In this document: in pieces, positions 29,152 to 47,704 of the stretch
How positions within the stretch are numbered: the first letter of the stretch is position 1
Layout: each line of letters opens with the position of its first letter
NCBI GenBank assembly: GCA_018902385.1
Contig: JABSSW010000036.1
Coordinates: 124,001-188,000, forward strand
Reading direction: 5' to 3'
DNA from: Physcia stellaris
Lineage: Eukaryota; Ascomycota; Lecanoromycetes; Caliciales; Physciaceae
DNA length: 64,000 bases
The notes under the pieces: model-generated
The model's database searches: none
Seen by the model: the letters and a program-made list of their open reading frames with translations, nothing else
What the model was told of the DNA's origin: nothing
Translations under genes and position numbers: made by a program

Positions 29152-32020
29152 ATGTATTTGAAATCCTGGGCATACTTTGCAAGCAGTGGGCTTGTGTTCG
29201 TGGAGGCTTCAGTTAGTGAGTTGCGTCCCCGGCCCATCTACGACGATGCCATGGCTAATACTAGCCAGATAACATCTCACAAACCATTGGACACGCTATT
29301 ACCAGCCGTCCTTTGGTTACTCCTGAACCGACAGCAAGCAGCTGTTGGGGTTGCACTTATAATCGCAAGGTCCTTAGAGGGTTTTGGGACACTAATGAGA
29401 TCTATACCCAGACCGCTGCTCTTGTGGAGCTCATCATTGACGATTCGACGAATACCACTAGCACATCGACAATCAGGAATGCCAGTCTCCCGTCGCCTAC
29501 CTATACGATCGATAATAGCGTAGTCAATGGAAGCGTGGCCACACTTACTCTAGGCTCTTTGACAACGTACATGTAAGTCATCCTTAACATCGATGAACTA
29601 CCAAATCGCAAAGCCTCCTTGGTGGGACAGCTTGTTTCTCCGACAAGTTCTCTCTACAAGACACGGAGATGTATGGTACAACCGAATCTAATTAGAATTG
29701 CAGGACTTACCCTACGTGGTACGACATATTCTACAACTTCTCGGCGACCTTTCAATCGTTGGCTACGATTACCGGTAATGGCACATCGAGCGTGATATGC
29801 ACGGGTGAATGGAAACACTATTCCGAAGCCTTTGCCAACACGACGGAGGGGCCAAATGGCGACTACTCTCCCAGTACAGTCGTCGACGCATTAAATGCCT
29901 TCACATCTTCGGCTTTTCCAGGATGCACTCTAGAGGCTAGAGCCATAGTTGCGGCACCATCGACAAAGGTTCGCGTTTCTCAAGTGACGGCCACATCAAC
30001 CAGACATGTAGCTACTGGGGTCAAACCATTGCCGGATGCTGGCATAGGATTCTCAGTCGAGTCCGAGGGATCTGATGTCTCAGATTCATCCGCCTCCGGG
30101 GCCAGCTGTGGGGATCATGGTGTGACTTACACTCATACGTCAGGCCTGGACGTGACCATTGGGTGTTTTGGTGCGTCGAGTGGACCTGTTGTGCATGCTA
30201 CCGTGACTGATGGGCTTCATCCAACACCTTCAGAAACCCAACAGCAGATTGGGGTCGAAAGCGAAACCAAGAAACCTGGCTATAGCGATATTAACCTCCC
30301 TTTCTTTGGTCCGATCGAAATTCACCCAACAGAGCGGCCCTCACCACTCCCCACTCCATCTCCAGGGTCTGGTGGTGATTCTGGAAGCCAGCCTGTCGTA
30401 GCTTTACCAGTCACTCAATCTCCAAGCGAAGGGCAAGGCGGTTACAACAGTCAAGATGGATCAAATGGTCGAGTGGGTCAAATCGGAGCCAACGACCAAG
30501 GCGAATCCAGCGGCCAAGACGGTCTTAGTGGCCAAATTGGATCTAGTGGTCAGAGTGAGTCTAATGGCCAAGGCGGTTCCGGTGATCAAAATCAATCTAG
30601 TGGTCCAGATGAGTCAAATGGTCAAAACGGATCCAATGGCCAAATTGCATCTAACAGTCAAAATGGATACAACGACCAAGGCGCATCCGACGGTCAAGGC
30701 GAATCCAACGGCCAAGACTATTCCAATGGCCAAAGTGGATCTAACAGTCAAAATGGAGCCAATGATCAAGGCGGATCCAATGGTCAAAATGGATCCAATG
30801 GTCAAGATGTATCCAATCTACCTTCACCTACGGTCATTACGCCGCCTGCTCAGATCACTGTTGGTAGTCAAACCTATACCGCGAACCCATCTTCTCAATT
30901 TGTTGTTGGATCACAAACATTGGAGGCAGGAGGAGACGCAGTCACCCACGAAGGGCATACTATATCTCTGGGGCCGTCCGCGTCTAATATTGTTATCGAC
31001 AGCAGCACGGGGGTCATCTCTTACCCAATAGACACTACATTGTTGCCCACCGCCCTACCAGTACTTACCATTGACAATCAGCCGGTCACGGCAAACGACG
31101 CTTCCGAGTACATAATAGGAAGCCAAACTCTTATTCCAGGTGGTTCAGCTATCACAATCAGCGGTACGCCGGTGTCACTCGCCCCATCAGAGTCAGCGAT
31201 TGTCATCGGAAGCAAGACTGAAACCATCTCGCACCTACCCATCACTACCCCTAAACCTACCTCCGCAGCAATTCTTACCATCAACAACCAACTCATCACT
31301 GCAAATGGTGCATCCGAATATATAATTGGCAGCCAGACCCTCATTCCAGGCGGCCCCGCCATCACCGTCAGCGGAACGCTGATTTCGTTGGCTCCATCAG
31401 CCTCAGCTATTGTCATCGATGGCAGCACAAAATCCATCCCTACTCCATCTGTGACATCCGCGCCAGTACTCACCATCAACAACCAGCCCGTCACGGCCAA
31501 CAGTGCTTCGGAGTACATAATTGGGAGCCAAACCCTCATTCCGGGCGGCCCCGCAATCACCGTCAGCGGTACGCTGATTTCGTTGGCTCCATCAGCGTCA
31601 GCTGTTGTCATCGGTGACAGCACAGAAATTCTTTCTTCTCCATCTGTCACCGCCGCACCGGTTCTCACCATCAACAACCAGCCCGTCACGGCCAATAGTG
31701 CGTCGGAGTACATAATCCAAGGCCAAACCCTCATTCCGGGCGGTCCAGCGATCACAGTCAGTGGTACTCCAATCTCTTTGGCCCCATCGGCATCAGATGT
31801 CGTTGTAGGCAGCAGCACGGAAGCGCTGGGCTCAATCATCATGGGCGGCTTTGGGCCGAGCGACGCAACTGCTGGCTCGATAGGGAGTGGGAGCGCAAAC
31901 TCGACGACTACAACCCCTGAGGCGTTTACAGGCGGTGCGGGATTGATGAGGAAGATCAAGGTTTCGAGGGTTGTGGCTGTGGGGCTGGGCATTGGGATGG
32001 TCATGGCCTTCACGGGTTGA
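29152..32020 (+). CDS. Secreted repeat-rich surface protein A, probable GPI-anchored
   Basis: Exons 29152-29215, 29269-29572 and 29704-32020 (introns of 53 and 131 bp; phases 1 and 2) give 894 residues. The first exon encodes a signal peptide (MYLKSWAYFASSGLVFVEASV). An N-terminal domain has CWGC, many NxT/S sites, TYPTWYDIFYNFSATFQS and CTGEWKHYSE. Next are a Pro/Ser linker, a Ser/Asn/Gly/Gln hexapeptide array (30428-30825) and five ~65-residue repeats with the core TLIPGGPAITVSGTPISLAPS. The C terminus has LGSIIMGGFG, a Ser/Thr spacer, FTGGAG and a final hydrophobic segment (VVAVGLGIGMVMAFTG), fitting a GPI signal. It is paralogous to proteins B and C downstream, which share the repeat and C-terminal layout. 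It is probably a cell-wall or adhesin-like protein; role unknown. Confidence 0.75.
30428..30825 (+). repeat. Coding minisatellite, 18-bp period, in protein A
   Basis: Around 20 imperfect copies of an 18-bp unit encode (S/A)NGQ(N/D)G hexapeptides, for example GGATCCAATGGTCAAAAT. The period is a multiple of three, so length changes keep frame. This region is the likeliest to vary between strains. Confidence 0.85.
30850..31830 (+). repeat. Five tandem ~195-205-bp repeats in protein A
   Basis: The units begin near ITVGSQTY or LTI(D/N)NQ(P/L)(V/I)TAN and run through SEYIIGSQTLIPGGPAITVSG and SLAPSAS.VVIG. Copies 3-5 are nearly identical at the DNA level over much of the unit (for example the stretch encoding TINNQPVTANSASEYII occurs twice), which suggests recent duplication or gene conversion. 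Confidence 0.8.
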
Positions 32021-38077: not shown

Positions 38078-41000
38078 ATGACTTCTCAAGTACTCATTGT
38101 TGGAATCCTCCTTTTGCGTCTTTGCCAAGGGAGCCCATGGCCACAACATGGTGGGCCTTAATCCATTCGCTATTTCACTAATCTACATGTACTTACACAA
38201 CGTAGCGTATCCCTTCAGCCTCAACAATAGCACCCGCAGTATTGTTGCCACAGCATCTGGCGGCCAAGTAGCGGGCTCAGCATCCAACGCAAATGCAAGT
38301 CAGCCGCAGGGACATTGTTGTTTTGTTGTTCAAGACACTTTTAATGTCAACTACTGGGCTAGTATGATGGATCTTTTCGTTATTAGGTGATCTGTACTCA
38401 TTCCACTAGATCAATACACTTCCACCTTCTATGGTCTACGGAGAATAACATCAGTTGTTGCTTTCAAAACGCAGTACGAGGACACGATCATCACCAGATA
38501 TGCCACATCGACGACGATCAAAAACACGACCTACCTCAGCACCTACCAGAACGCTAAAGACGGTGTTTATGCCTCCAACGGATTGGTCGGCCCACAGCTG
38601 GCTGAGACCCTAATCAACGGCACCATAACCACATTCCACCGTACAGCTATGTAAGTACTCTATCATCAACGACCCAAGCGGATCAATGATCAAGATCTAA
38701 TCTATTTCAGAGCTTCGCCGACAGGTTTCTTTGCATATCCGTCAGTGAAGATTATTAATGTACCTGCTGTTAAGGACGCTGGTGGACAACTCGCATGTGC
38801 TACCTCTTCTATCTATACGACATGCTTAGATTCTAAACACTTCGTCACTTTTGAGAGTGTCAACTCGGCGGCAGAAGCATACTTTGGTACCCTTCAACAG
38901 TCTAAGATTTCAACAACGTATATGTATACACAATCTACATGGTATTCCATAATCTCTCTAGGCGTTGGATCTTACACACAAGAAACATTTACGGGCTTGA
39001 CCACAAGGCTCGTCACAGGCCAAAACATAGTTCCTTATACTGCTCACAACACGTCTTATTCGACTGCGGAGATAACATTTTCATCTCCATTTTTGTACTT
39101 TCCTACTCGGGCTTCGACCGAGAGGACAGTTCCAAAGGGCGAACTCCCAGGTATCGCAGACGTCTCAACGCCTCGAGTAGCTGGTCGTGCAGTAACGAGT
39201 AGAGACGCTCAAGATTTTGACAGCGACAAAGCTGTCTATGGCTATGTTCCGTCAGAATTAATTAAGTGGATTTTGCAAAATACTGATTACGTGGCGCAAT
39301 ACCCATCCCTAGGCTCCTGTATACCTGGCGGTCCAAGTCTACTTCCACTTCCTAGTATTCCAGGTCGTCAGGATATTCTCACAGCAAGTGATGGCAGCAA
39401 TTACTGCCAATATGCAGCTCCAGAGGTTGCAAATGCTGTACCGGATTTAACTACAACGGCGGAAGTCATGGTTCAGAGTACAGGTTGCTTCCATCCAGGC
39501 AATTGCCAATCCAAACAGACGCCAACTGCAGCGCCAGCTTCACCGATTTCTTCCGAATTTCCACGAAGCACAAATCCATCTAGCACGGAGAAAGAAAGTC
39601 ATAGCAAGACGTCGACTGAGACAAAAAGAGAGACGCAGTCGTCAAAAGTGTCCAAGGTTGGCTCAAATCCATCCCCGGCGGTTCCATTGCCGGTGATTGT
39701 ACCGATTGCAAGCCCACCAGTGCAAACTCCGTCGAAACCTTTAATAACGCCCGAGCAAACTGCAACCCTGTTACCAGTGAACAATGACGAATCGGGTGGA
39801 CCCGCGCAGACCCCGGTTGAGCATCAAACCGGGAGCTCAGTCCCCAGTAGTCCCTTGGTCGTTGGTCCTGAAGGCAGCTCCGATCCGCGATTTTCCAACG
39901 ATGTTCTCGCGGGAAGTGCGGTGGTCACTGTAGCTAGCCTTGCTAGTCAAACCATTTCTCGAGGCTTGACACCTATTGCAACGGTGGGTAGCCATAGAAT
40001 CAGTGCTTCAAATGGAGTCGTTGTTGTTGCTGGGTCTACTCTCTCGCCCGGAGGACCTGCGATAACCCTTGCCAGCACTCCAGTCTCTCGAGATGGCTCA
40101 GGAAATCTAGTAGTGGGATCAACCAGCATACCAATCCCACCGTCCAGTCCAGATAGCATCTTCACGGACGCTGGGCAGGTGTTCACGATGGGTACGTCAG
40201 GGGTTGTTGTGGGGGTGAGACGGTTTCTCCTGATGGTCCTGCAATAATAGTTTCCGGAACACCTATTTCCCTGGGCTCATCACAGCTTATCGTCGGCAGC
40301 TCCACAGTTCGATTACCGGAACCGTCTCCTTCCACTATATCTAGTAACATTGTCGTCGCTGGCCAGACCTTTGCGCAGCTTCCTGACGGTATCTCCGTAG
40401 CAGGTACTACTCTAAGATCTCAAGGACCTGCCGTCACGATCTCAGGCACACCGATCTCTCTAGGTAACTCTGGAGTTGTAATTGGTGCCACCACCTTTCC
40501 TTTGCCGACAGCTTTCCCAGATAGCCCATCTCAGACCTTGACTCTGAACGGCCAAACCCTCACGGCCGGCCCCGATGCTGTGGCTATAGCGGGCAATACT
40601 CTTACACCGAATGGGCCCGCTGTCACTATCTCGGGTACGCCAATATCCGTTGACAACTCTGGTATCGTCATCGGCTCTTCTACCTTTTCGCTACCAACAC
40701 CCTTGCCCACATCCGCACCGCAAACTTTCACCCTCGGCGGTCAAACCTTCACTGTCGAATCAGGTGGCGTGGCAGTCGCAGGAACTACACTCGGCCCTCA
40801 CGCTCCCGGGCTTACTATATCTGGCACTTCAATTTCCCTCGGCCTCTCAAGTATCATCATCGGTTCCAGTACCTTTGCTCTCCCAACGCCCTTTACTCCA
40901 AGCTCGGAGCAGACATTCACCATAGGCGGCCAAGTCTTCACCGCCACGTCAGGCGTTGTAGCCATTGCAGGATCAACTCTCTCACCTAACGGCCCTGGCA

Positions 41001-43797: not shown

Positions 43798-45287
43798 TTT
43801 GGGATGCGTGGAGTAAGAGAGACGGAGTATAGGTAATAAAAAATCAAGGAAGGCTCTGAAAGTTAAGAAGATGTCTCTTGTCTACTATGTAGCGTGTATC
43901 GAAGCTGTGTTGAACAGGATTCCTGATCCATTATATATCACTTCGGATTATACTCTCTGCCCATGCATCCTTAGGCCCGGGTCACGTTGCCGGAATATGC
44001 AAGTTGCTTGCTCAGCATCCCAACCTCTGCCCGAGAATTTGTTTAAGGCGCTATGCCGCCCTCAGAAGCACCTCACTCTCGAGTCCTCCTTTTCGGGGTT
44101 TGGTTGATGCGGGGTACATCAAAGGCAAAGTATCGACGCCAAGTAGCGTTCAGTGATAGGATACTCTAATTATGGCTCATGGACAAATAAATAGCGCGGT
44201 GTTTGTAAACTCCTAAAGTACTCGGATTCGGCCTCTGCGGTTCTCTTTTGTCCGTGTGGGGTCTCGTGACTCCTGCAGCTCGGATGCTGCAGGTAGGGTG
44301 TTGGAAAAGGAAACAATCGGCTAACGCACCATTGCGATCTGTCCGCACTCCTAGGTGGAAGATACTGGCGCTTTTCATGACCAAACTGAAAGAAAAGATA
44401 GGAGGACGAGATACCTGACGTAGGAATGCATACAAACTCCATGTCGACCCTCAAAGCCTTGGCTTCAGCCAGATGTTTGGGATAAGGGGGATGTCTTAGT
44501 CGCATTTTCGAGCGCATCTTCGGCTTTTTTCATACAACGAAGGCAAGGAATGCGACATTAGAGGCACCATACGGAGTACATTGATCAAGAAACAATACAC
44601 CGAACAAATGTGGAGAGAGGCAAAACAGGAGTCGTCTCCGCGGCATGACGAGAAAGGAGACAGCAGGTCGCATGGTTCGGTACTCAGGCTAGTAAACACG
44701 GTTCAAAAACGATAGATTAATCCAATGAGGACTCATCTGACATACTTACAATGCCGAGAGTACGAAGGCATGGCCTTGGAGGAGACATGCTCGCCAATCC
44801 AGTCAGCAAATGGATGGAGCAAGGGTTCGACCAGCCCGGACGATGGATATGAGAATTGATACAAGATCCTTCGAAGGACTGAGGGACAATATTCCCGCCT
44901 CCTGAAGATAAAAGCATCGCGCGGCTTGGCGGCAACGTCACCCGAAGATTCGCGACCGTGCGGAAAACTACTCGAGTGTTTAATGCAACCTCAATCGCCA
45001 TCTATCTGCTGGCAGTATCATGCATTGATTCCGAGCGATTACTACAACACTATCCGTATCTGTATGAGATTTCCATGTTGTGCAGCTGGCTGCGGTTCAC
45101 AAGCAGTGGCTGAAGACGGCCAATTAGTGCAGTACTATATTTGGAGGATTGTGCATTCTGCGATCCTTCAGCCTTGTACCCATCTTTCATGGGTCTCTCA
45201 TCCCAATTCCCTATTCCTCTCCATCTCTTTCACTTCTCACATCTCTTCTACTACTCACATCTCTGAGCGTCTTGTCGACTGCGAGTG
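43798..45287. other. Intergenic, nothing recognised
   Basis: This is a divergent spacer between the monooxygenase and surface gene C. Several short minus-strand frames (44166-45001) have no recognisable content. Confidence 0.4.
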
Positions 45288-47704
45288 ATGCTCTCATGCT
45301 TCTTCGTGCTTGCCATAGAAGTATCCACCCGGTAACCGGACAAACCCAGTAACCGGACAACCTAGGGTTGACCACGTAGCCTCTCACCCTAACCCTAGAA
45401 GTGCAGTCGTCAACTCTAGGCTGTCCGGTTACTGGGTTTGTCCGGTTACCGGGTGGATTCTTCTAACACTTTCTCTTATCAACGCCCTTCATCCCCATGA
45501 TGTTACAGATCTTGCGCCCAGGGCCAAACCCACCATTACCTCCGGCGCAGATGATCAATGCTGTTTTGTTATTCAAGATCATCTCAGTGTCAACTACTGG
45601 GCCCGTACGCATCTCAAATCCCTCATGCCCAATATCTGCTTGACCGTCTGCAGATTACTTCACCTCCACATGGTATGGGCTTCGAAAGGTGACGACTGTC
45701 ATCTCGACTGTCACGCAGTACCAAGACACTGCTATCACCAATTATGAAACCAAGACGACTGTCAAGAACACGACATACGCCACCACCATCGAGGTCGCCG
45801 AAAATTGGGTCTATGCATCTAATGCCGCCCCTGGTCCCACTTTACACGAAACGAAGATTAACGCCACCCAGATATCGATTGCTGATAGAGTCGTGTAAGT
45901 CTCAGCGTCTCTCTTTACTATTCCGTCACCCAACACAATATTGTGTTCAGGCGACTTTAGGCTTTTCATAACGGTTGAAGCCACATTAGTTCTATTCTAG
46001 AGTATATGAAATGGTCGAATCTAAGTCCCTCCGTGCTTAAGCTCTATTTCACATCACATTCCTTTTGCTGTAAACTGCTGAAATGCTTGTTTTTCGAATG
46101 AAATGTGAGAGGACGTCGGCCATTGACAGTGTCATAGGACTTCACCGATAGGTTTTTTCGTGTATCCTTCGGTGAAGATCATCAATGTGCCTGCTGTCAC
46201 CGACACCAATGGAAATTTAGCATGCACGACAGCCTCCACCTACCATCTCAAATGCCCTGAGCCGATTGATAGTGCGACCTTCAGTGGCGTCAACTCTCAC
46301 GTCCAAGCATACTATGGCGGTCTCAGCTCGTCAGTTGAAACTTCTACAAACACTTATACAGCCTCCAGGTGGTCGAAGCTTCCAGGTCCGACCCTCATCC
46401 AAATACCCATCACAAATCAGTCAACGTTTACTATGACGGGAACTGCTACCGTCACCAATACCACTCAGGCTGCAACCTCTTTCTTCACAACGGAACTTAG
46501 CTTTGCCACACCATTTTTGTATTTTCCATCACGAGGCGCGACTGAAGTACAGAATACTGGAGACCTCCCGCAACTCGTGGGACAGTCTACTTCAGGTGCG
46601 AATTTGGACGCAAGAGCGTTATCATCAACAACTTCCCACACCAGAACAGTCTACGATCCGCTTCTTGCAGACTATGGTTATGTTCCACAGGAAGTGATCG
46701 ATTCTATTGCCCAGATTCCGGAATATATAAAGCAGTACCCGACTTTGGTATCATGCCTTCCTGGCGGTCCTAGCATACTCCCAATCAAAGATCACGAGCC
46801 ATGGATAAACGTCATAGCTGACGGTTGTGCTGCGGCAGCACCAGAAGCCCTGTCGCCAGTGCCTGATCTCACTACTTCGTTAGGAGCGACCATCCAAGCT
46901 GAAGGATGCTTTCACCCTGGCGCCTGCGCTGCGACGGTGACCTCCGTCCCAGCACCAGCTTCCACGCCTGTTTTAACTCTTCCCGCCATTATCACACACC
47001 CTTTCTCGGTACTTAAGCAAACAGCAACGTCTTCTTCTAAACAGGAGGAATCGGGAGTTGGATCATCAAAAGGTTTTCCTAATCCCATGTCCATCCTTGC
47101 GCCAATAGTTGGATCAGTGGATCAGAGTTCCAGCAAGACATTCAATCCCGCGGAGACAGCCAAGCCAGCAACTAATTCGGAAGCGGAGGAGGTCACCGCT
47201 GGAGCTGTCACAGAGTCTCTTGCTTCGTCTTTTAGTCTTCCCGTGATAGTCATGGTATCACCAACCGACATCCTGCCATCCGGAGGATACGGTAACGTCA
47301 TCACTAGTGCAGGTTACACACTTACTTTCATACCATCTACATCCGCCGTCGTTGTAGCAGGTCAGACCCTCGATCTCGGCTCTTCTGCTGTTCTGATCTC
47401 GGGCACTCCTGTGGCTCTGGGTTCTTCAGGCTTGATTATAGGAACCTCTACCGTGCCTCTTTCCAATTCGGACAAGACTATGAGCGCAACTGGGTCAACG
47501 CAAGGCCTTGGAGGTATCATCATTGGAGCTTTCGGACCGCACCAGACATCAACAGAGCCTGCATCGACCGGGGGCTCACCTACTGTTGCAAATGGAAACG
47601 CAACATCTCCAATAGCTTTCCTGGGGGGTACACGGAAACAAGAGAGGGGGCTCGTGAAGGTTTTAGGAGTTATAGCGATAATGGCTAGTTGGCAATACTT
47701 GTGA
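45288..47704 (+). CDS. Secreted surface protein C, signal-peptide exon interrupted by a MITE
   Basis: Exons are 45288-45604 (containing the 146-bp element 45318-45463), 45654-45894 and 46138-47704. Ten codons, MLSCFFVLAI, precede the element, and the frame resumes TLSLINALHPHDV right after it; leaving out the element and one TA copy gives a continuous signal peptide, and all later phases fit (658 residues). As it stands, frame 1 stops six codons into the element. The N-terminal domain matches protein B (QCCFVIQDHLSVNYWA, TWYGLRKVTTVIS, FFVYPSVKIINVPAVTD, PDLTTS, CFHPGAC). Only about one copy of the surface repeat is present (VAGQTLDLGSSAVLISGTPVALG). The end has GLGGIIIGAFG, IAFLGG and a hydrophobic tail. 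Intron 3 (243 bp) is unusually long for this cluster. It may be silenced, or kept alive by splicing within the element. Confidence 0.7.
45318..45463. mobile_element. 146-bp MITE, 55-bp terminal inverted repeats, TA target duplication
   Basis: The left arm 45318-45372 and right arm 45409-45463 are inverted copies (55 bp, 52 matching), starting GAAG(T/A)ATCCACCCGG. Each arm holds two copies of GTAACCGGACAA. The 36-bp loop contains CCCTAACCCTAG, resembling two telomere-type repeats. TA flanks both ends (45316-45317 and 45464-45465), which fits a Tc1/mariner-type non-autonomous element. There is no coding capacity. Confidence 0.88.

What the first reader, a model, noticed from the sequence alone, without database searches (positions are those of the whole stretch)
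45288..45604. A MITE sits exactly inside the signal-peptide codons of surface gene C
The 146-bp element with 55-bp inverted repeats is flanked by TA on both sides. The codons before it (MLSCFFVLAI) and after it (TLSLINALHPHDV) join in frame if the element and one TA are left out, giving a proper signal peptide, and all downstream splice phases then agree. The insertion is therefore recent relative to the gene and disrupts secretion or expression of one member of a three-gene family.
Basis: seen in the sequence. Interest (0 to 1): 0.8.

Follow-up and report, generated by a model that had tools for sequence, protein, structure and literature searches.

The report
Short transposon interrupts fungal surface-protein gene
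In a fungal genome a short, non-coding jumping element of a known kind sits inside the opening (secretion-signal) part of what looks like a cell-surface protein gene and stops it from being read there, which is ordinary for such elements; on the way the genome's long transposon copies showed an unusual pattern of mutation.

Summary
A 146-bp element (45318-45463) with 55-bp inverted arms and TA on both sides follows codon 10 of a probable surface-protein gene. Element plus one TA is 148 bp, so both sides share a frame; downstream exons and intron phases match paralog B. The genome has 11 complete copies of 145-146 bp; 15 of 16 complete copies of all sizes have TA on both sides. A 2,468-bp relative with similar ends encodes a DDE_1 transposase (in two frames, so broken): a MITE of the Fot1/pogo kind. 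Translation from the gene's ATG now stops after 15 residues; of 15 introns tried, two keep the frame, from a weak donor. Loss of the product is the best reading, inferred without RNA. 'Recent' is not shown: no relatives are held and the assembly holds no empty allele. The three genes share their C-terminal repeat region; only B matches C throughout. Side finding: a long AT-rich copy was C-to-T mutated at CpC (80%) and CpT (61%) but hardly at CpA (7%) or CpG (6%), and other AT-rich stretches have matching composition. That reverses the RIP preferences in the passages read.

The parts
45318..45463 (.). 146-bp MITE (Fot1/pogo-type, non-autonomous)
45316..45317 (.). left TA of the target-site duplication
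45464..45465 (.). right TA of the target-site duplication
45318..45372 (.). left 55-bp arm; holds two head-to-tail copies of a 17-bp motif (45327-45343, 45344-45360)
   Evidence: 3 mismatches of 55 between the arms
45409..45463 (.). right 55-bp arm with the same motif twice on the other strand
45288..45317 (+). start codon and first 10 codons of gene C (hydrophobic start of a signal peptide)
45333..45335 (+). in-frame TAA inside the element that ends translation after 15 residues
45466..45604 (+). rest of exon 1 of gene C (end of signal peptide, start of mature protein)
45654..45894 (+). exon 2 of gene C
   Evidence: 57% over 70 residues to exon 2 of B
46138..47704 (+). exon 3 of gene C with GPI-anchor-like hydrophobic tail and stop
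38078..38150 (+). signal exon of paralog B, 24 codons + 1 nt, followed by an intron (placed by eye)
29152..29215 (+). signal exon of gene A, 21 codons + 1 nt, followed by an intron (placed by eye); A shares only its C-terminal repeat region with B and C

Best explanation
A non-autonomous Fot1/pogo-type MITE was inserted by a transposase supplied in trans into a TA in codon 10 of a gene for a secreted, probably GPI-anchored surface protein, duplicating the TA. The gene's ATG now leads into the element and stops after 15 residues; any transcript carries a long hairpin. The gene is therefore most likely an interrupted (null) allele, probably young. Shown: the element, its kin, the TA, the frames, the early stop. 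Inferred: mobilisation by the long relative, surface location, loss of product, age.
For: 16 complete TIR pairs examined: 11 of 145-146 bp, 3 of 187 bp, 2 of 2.46 kb; TA on both sides in 15 of 16 (places on C2, C7, C10, C18, C21, C31 where the pattern gave only one end, or a split copy, were set aside before this count). C12 long copy: DDE_1 E 1.3e-31; its ends are 83-98% identical to those of the short copies. 148-bp offset in frame; gene body open for 648 codons with matching phases and homologous to B exon by exon; leader length 24 codons + 1 nt as in two paralogs. Early stop; first in-frame Met of the downstream part at residue 226. Chance: of 2 x 2,924 TA sites in the window read as they stand, 5 follow an ATG by 3-25 codons in an open, hydrophobic start.
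Against: No RNA, no second strain, no empty allele. By eye B, A and the C5 paralog all have a phase-1 intron after the signal exon and C has none there, so the first exon of C rests on reading frame, not on transcripts. Private changes in the element sit uneasily with a very recent insertion: if the 4 unanimous private changes came after insertion, a neutral gene of this size would stay undamaged with probability 0.14 (no indels) to 0.004 (indels at 0.1 per substitution, assumed). Two in-frame introns are possible in principle (45332-45521, 45332-45587), with a poor donor GTAACC; introns with a donor upstream of the ATG were not enumerated.
Confidence: 0.8

Rival explanations
1. The gene is still expressed: the element is spliced out as part of a new intron or is bypassed by an alternative first exon.
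For: Gene body intact; the right junction happens to create CTAAC, a branch-point-like word, 45463-45467; two GT-AG pairs keep the frame.
Against: Only 2 of 15 donor-acceptor pairs tested keep the frame, both with the weak donor GTAACC inside the hairpin stem; the nearer acceptor (45508) is out of frame for it; much of the signal peptide would be lost. None of the 5 ATGs between 44900 and 45287 reads, unspliced, into gene C; upstream exons with introns were not tested.
Confidence: 0.12
2. The hairpin transcribed from the MITE feeds small-RNA silencing, so that the insertion silences gene C, and other MITE-bearing transcripts, in trans.
For: Very stable stem of about 55 bp; the idea is voiced for fungal Tc1-mariner elements and MITEs in PMC4188875 (passages).
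Against: No small-RNA data; Dicer and Argonaute genes were not looked for.
Confidence: 0.08
3. A reversible switch: excision of the MITE in some cells restores a surface protein.
For: Cut-and-paste transposons can excise (established knowledge).
Against: No intact transposase of this family was found: the C12 copy is split over two frames, the C43 copy has many TGA stops; the other 9 of 10 DDE_1 matches hold stops (a lower bound).
Confidence: 0.03

Closest known systems
Fot1/pogo-type transposons and Tc1-mariner MITEs of filamentous ascomycetes
   Same: TIRs of the 40-60-bp class seen in most Fot elements (PMC7386202 passages); [quoted passage not shown]
   Different: Here 146 and 187 bp against 481-813 nt for the six Sclerotinia MITEs, none of which was assigned to its TcMar-Pogo family; TA duplication, while most Fot elements have TAA and TA occurs in the FotC and FotD clades.
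mimp elements of Fusarium (recalled; seen only in search listings)
   Same: Short non-autonomous Tc1-mariner-group elements near genes for secreted proteins (recalled).
   Different: mimps belong to impala and lie in promoters (recalled); this one is Fot1/pogo-type and inside coding sequence.
Repeat-induced point mutation (for the side finding)
   Same: C-to-T and G-to-A changes on both strands in a long transposon copy; DNA methyltransferase genes present.
   Different: Preference CpC > CpT >> CpA, CpG; the orders seen in print are CpA>CpT>CpG>CpC for N. crassa and CpA~CpG, CpT>CpC for T. reesei (PMC5496416 passage).

Membership tests
MITE | Short, non-coding, terminal inverted repeats | tested here: met
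   146 bp, arms 55 bp with 3 mismatches
MITE | Many copies of uniform length | tested here: met
   11 complete copies of 145-146 bp and 3 of 187 bp
MITE | Fixed-size target-site duplication | tested here: met
   TA on both sides in 15 of 16 complete copies
Fot1/pogo transposons | Related long element with similar ends and a DDE_1 transposase | tested here: met
   C12:387223-389690, DDE_1 E 1.3e-31
Fot1/pogo transposons | HTH_Tnp_Tc5 / CENP-B type DNA-binding domain | tested here: inconclusive
   HTH_Tnp_Tc5 16.5 bits and HTH_psq 17.1 bits, both below Pfam's cut-offs
Fot1/pogo transposons | Mobilised by that transposase | not testable with these tools
   needs an excision assay
Canonical RIP (side finding) | CpA as the favoured target | tested here: not met
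   one aligned pair: CpA 20 of 293, CpC 222 of 278; composition of other AT-rich stretches agrees
Canonical RIP (side finding) | Acts before meiosis and needs a RID-type methyltransferase | not testable with these tools
   methyltransferase genes found by family search only

The most novel reading that the evidence does not exclude
This fungus has a RIP-like defence with inverted dinucleotide choice (CpC > CpT, sparing CpA and CpG). It makes stops mainly at Trp codons (TGG to TGA). It degraded most of the long DDE_1 copies, among them one of the two long copies of this family, but not the short MITEs, which are therefore the part of the family that survives and interrupts genes such as C.
Probability: 0.65. 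Interest if true: 0.75.

Novelty: new member of a known kind. Interest (0 to 1): 0.4.

Why it matters
The insertion itself is a clean example of a fungal MITE breaking a probable surface-protein gene at its secretion signal, useful as a strain marker if it is polymorphic. The larger interest is the side finding: if the mutation pattern is a true RIP-like process, the target choice of the pathway is more flexible than the CpA-, CpT- and CpG-led signatures in the passages read, the usual TpA/ApT index would miss it, and a comparison of this fungus's methyltransferases with those of CpA-type species could show what sets the target.

Tried and rejected
Empty allele within the assembly: each flank matches only its own place. 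Introner-like splicing: 15 GT-AG pairs listed, donors from 45289 to 45463 only, 2 in frame, poor sites. An original intron across the site: paralogs have, by eye, a phase-1 intron after the signal exon, and TTACAG at 45508 has the right phase, but the only GT between the ATG and the insertion point, 45306, is in phase 0, so I take the intron as absent from C. Canonical RIP in the C43 copy: rejected by the TpA/ApT index (0.46) and by the aligned contexts. Pfam for the bodies of B (two ORFs) and C: no family; A: one Pfam match below its cut-off. NCBIfam for C, the first ORF of B, and A: only A matched, far below the cut-offs, to repeat-rich bacterial adhesins and a wall-binding protein, taken as compositional. 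Papers: a search for a 13-base word of the arm found none; no paper held all five of the terms for MITE, coding sequence, signal peptide, fungus and gene disruption.

Full report
What is there. The window is positions 124001-188000 of contig C36 of a 44-Mb genome in 147 contigs, by its genes and short introns a filamentous ascomycete (inference; no name is given). At 45318-45463 lies a 146-bp element with 55-bp inverted arms (3 mismatches), flanked by TA on both sides. Each arm carries a 17-bp motif twice in tandem. As RNA the stretch 45270-45520 folds at -123.7 kcal/mol, z -12.35. Of 11 inverted pairs listed in the window it alone has its arms close together.

It is a transposon. The search with the element gave 50 matches, many of them one place read on both strands; the arm pattern gave 61 places with up to 3 mismatches against 16 for the reversed control pattern, and 36 of the 61 have 0 or 1 mismatch. 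I examined 16 copies with both ends: 11 of 145-146 bp, 3 of 187 bp, 2 of 2,462 and 2,468 bp. TA stands on both sides in 15 of 16; in the copy C8:323234-323420 the right TA is gone. Places where the pattern gave one end only, or a copy split by other DNA (on C2, C7, C10, C18, C21, C31), were set aside before that count. [quoted passage not shown] the two frames part, so this copy looks broken. Its ends are 83-98% identical to those of the short copies. In a paper on pogo elements, most Fot elements have TAA duplications, TA occurs in clades FotC and FotD, and TIRs are mostly 40-60 bp (PMC7386202, passages); the present family fits the TA kind. No tree was built.

What it does to the gene. The ATG at 45288 and ten codons (MLSCFFVLAI) precede the element; from 45466 the frame reads TLSLINALHPHDV and on. 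The right-hand frame does not depend on the finding: the end of exon 1, exon 2 and exon 3 of C match gene B (73% over 15 residues, 57% over 70, 35% over 510; exon 3 in the whole genome 40% over 465, E 7.8e-57) with the same two intron phases, and together give 648 open codons and a hydrophobic tail like that of a GPI-anchored protein. Element plus one TA is 148 bp, and 45466 minus 148 falls in frame with 45288. A further check: counted that way, the leader up to 45508 has 24 codons + 1 nt, the length of the first exon of B and of the paralog on C5; that of A has 21 + 1. Those exon ends were placed by eye. All three have an intron there and C has none, so C appears to have lost it. With the element in place the reading from the ATG ends after 15 residues, and the first Met of the downstream part is its residue 226. 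Of 15 GT-AG pairs listed that could remove the element, 2 keep the frame, both from a weak donor GTAACC. So the product is most likely lost; RNA was not available.

The family. C and B match throughout. A shares the C-terminal repeat region with the second half of B (41% over 403 residues) and more weakly with C (32% over 117; pairwise E-values on a handful of sequences); it is not among the 15 genome matches of C's exon 3. A further paralog of C lies on C5 (E 2e-16).

Age. Against the three nearest sister copies the present one has 8 private differences, 4 of them where the others agree, 2 of those within the 110 arm bases. If the 4 arose after insertion, a neutral gene of 1,947 bases would have stayed free of stops and frameshifts with probability 0.14 without indels and 0.004 with indels at a tenth of the substitution rate (assumed); for 2 in 110 the values are 0.28 and 0.03. 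Either the private changes came with the source copy and the insertion is young, or the gene is still selected. I favour the first. No relative is held, and neither flank has a second copy in the assembly, so an empty site could not be sought.

Another gene-interrupting copy. The 187-bp copy on C8 (L055) ends an open frame of repeats that look like ankyrin repeats by eye, a second, more decayed case.

Side finding: an unusual mutation pattern. The long copy on C43 is 78% identical to C12, and 445 of 540 substitutions are C to T or G to A. Sorted by the 3' neighbour in C12, C became T at CpC in 222 of 278, CpT in 185 of 301, CpA in 20 of 293 and CpG in 18 of 310 sites; in the reverse direction, as control, 1 of 36, 8 of 123, 12 of 296 and 12 of 304. 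The base before matters little. Fourteen AT-rich stretches, picked after a scan of the fetched loci and including C43 itself (29 kb pooled), show observed/expected CpC 0.10, CpT 0.30, CpA 1.27, CpG 3.04, against 0.97, 1.05, 1.07, 0.90 in the window. Of 10 DDE_1 matches in the genome, 9 hold stops: 44 TGA, 3 TAA, no TAG (two of the matches, on C14, overlap), as expected if TGG becomes TGA and CAA, CAG and CGA are spared.

Against a simple RIP reading. Only one pair of copies was aligned; the rest is composition. The C12 copy, long as it is, shows no such pattern (CpC 0.98); at 78% identity the two may be too unlike now, but RIP is expected to strike both copies. L057:1001-1500 is AT-rich without the pattern (CpG 0.62), L012:2001-3000 shows a milder form (CpT 0.7, CpG 1.9-2.0), and C25 (L069) only a weak one; these were left out of the pool.

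Literature on the pattern. In the passages I read, N. crassa is given as CpA>CpT>CpG>CpC and T. reesei as CpA~CpG, CpT>CpC (PMC5496416); a comparison of fungi names CpA, CpT and CpG (PMC4352252); CpT is strong in some N. crassa, S. nodorum and M. grisea repeats, and S. nodorum repeats are also depleted in CpC (PMC2621366); Monilinia shows CpA and some CpC-to-TpT double changes (PMC8959702). CpC as first target with CpA spared was in none of the passages that I read; the searches were made, and the survey by Clutterbuck that these papers cite was not seen. The usual TpA/ApT index is low here (0.46) and would miss it. Four methyltransferase matches lie in three places; from recall, those on C6 and C5 look like RID and that on C3 like DIM-2. 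The short copies keep their CC words, as expected if short repeats escape; in Mycosphaerella graminicola ten MITE families showed no specific dinucleotide bias (PMC4522978, passage).

Verdict. The finding is real and its main reading right: a Fot1/pogo-type MITE in the signal-peptide codons of a probable surface gene. As a kind of event it is ordinary. The mutation pattern of its long relatives is the part worth a specialist's time.

Noticed in passing
L046:1751-4212 against L045:1724-4191; composition of L047, L048, L049, L050, L053, L064, L067, L068, L070, L071: RIP-like C-to-T mutation with inverted preference: CpC 80%, CpT 61%, CpA 7%, CpG 6% in the aligned pair; CpG observed/expected about 3 in pooled AT-rich stretches; stops in DDE_1 relatives 44 TGA, 3 TAA, 0 TAG.
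   Followed up: partly
L072, L073, L074 (contigs C6, C3, C5): Three places with C5-methyltransferase matches; by recall two RID-like and one DIM-2-like. Two RID-like genes could bear on the unusual target choice.
   Followed up: partly
L055:1535-1721 (C8:323234-323420): A 187-bp copy of the same family interrupts a frame that looks like ankyrin repeats by eye; its right TA is lost.
   Followed up: partly
C7:430011-440487 (L048, L049): A MITE of this family is split by about 10.3 kb of AT-rich DNA with the CpC-poor pattern and a frame that looks like reverse transcriptase by eye: a nested insertion.
   Followed up: partly
45318-45463 and sister copies: Positions 5-7 of the arms (after GAAG) vary between copies while both sides are conserved; the centre carries the telomere-like word TTAGGG in 10 of 11 copies aligned, and similar words stand near the ends of the C12 long element.
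   Followed up: no
45895-46137: Intron 2 of gene C is 243 nt, that of B 60 nt (38651-38710).
   Followed up: no
38078-38150, 29152-29215, L066:160-232: Phase-1 intron directly after the signal-peptide exon in B, A and the C5 paralog (placed by eye), absent from C.
   Followed up: partly
30512-31800: Gene A holds tandem repeats of 18, 54, 90 and 195 bp in coding sequence.
   Followed up: no
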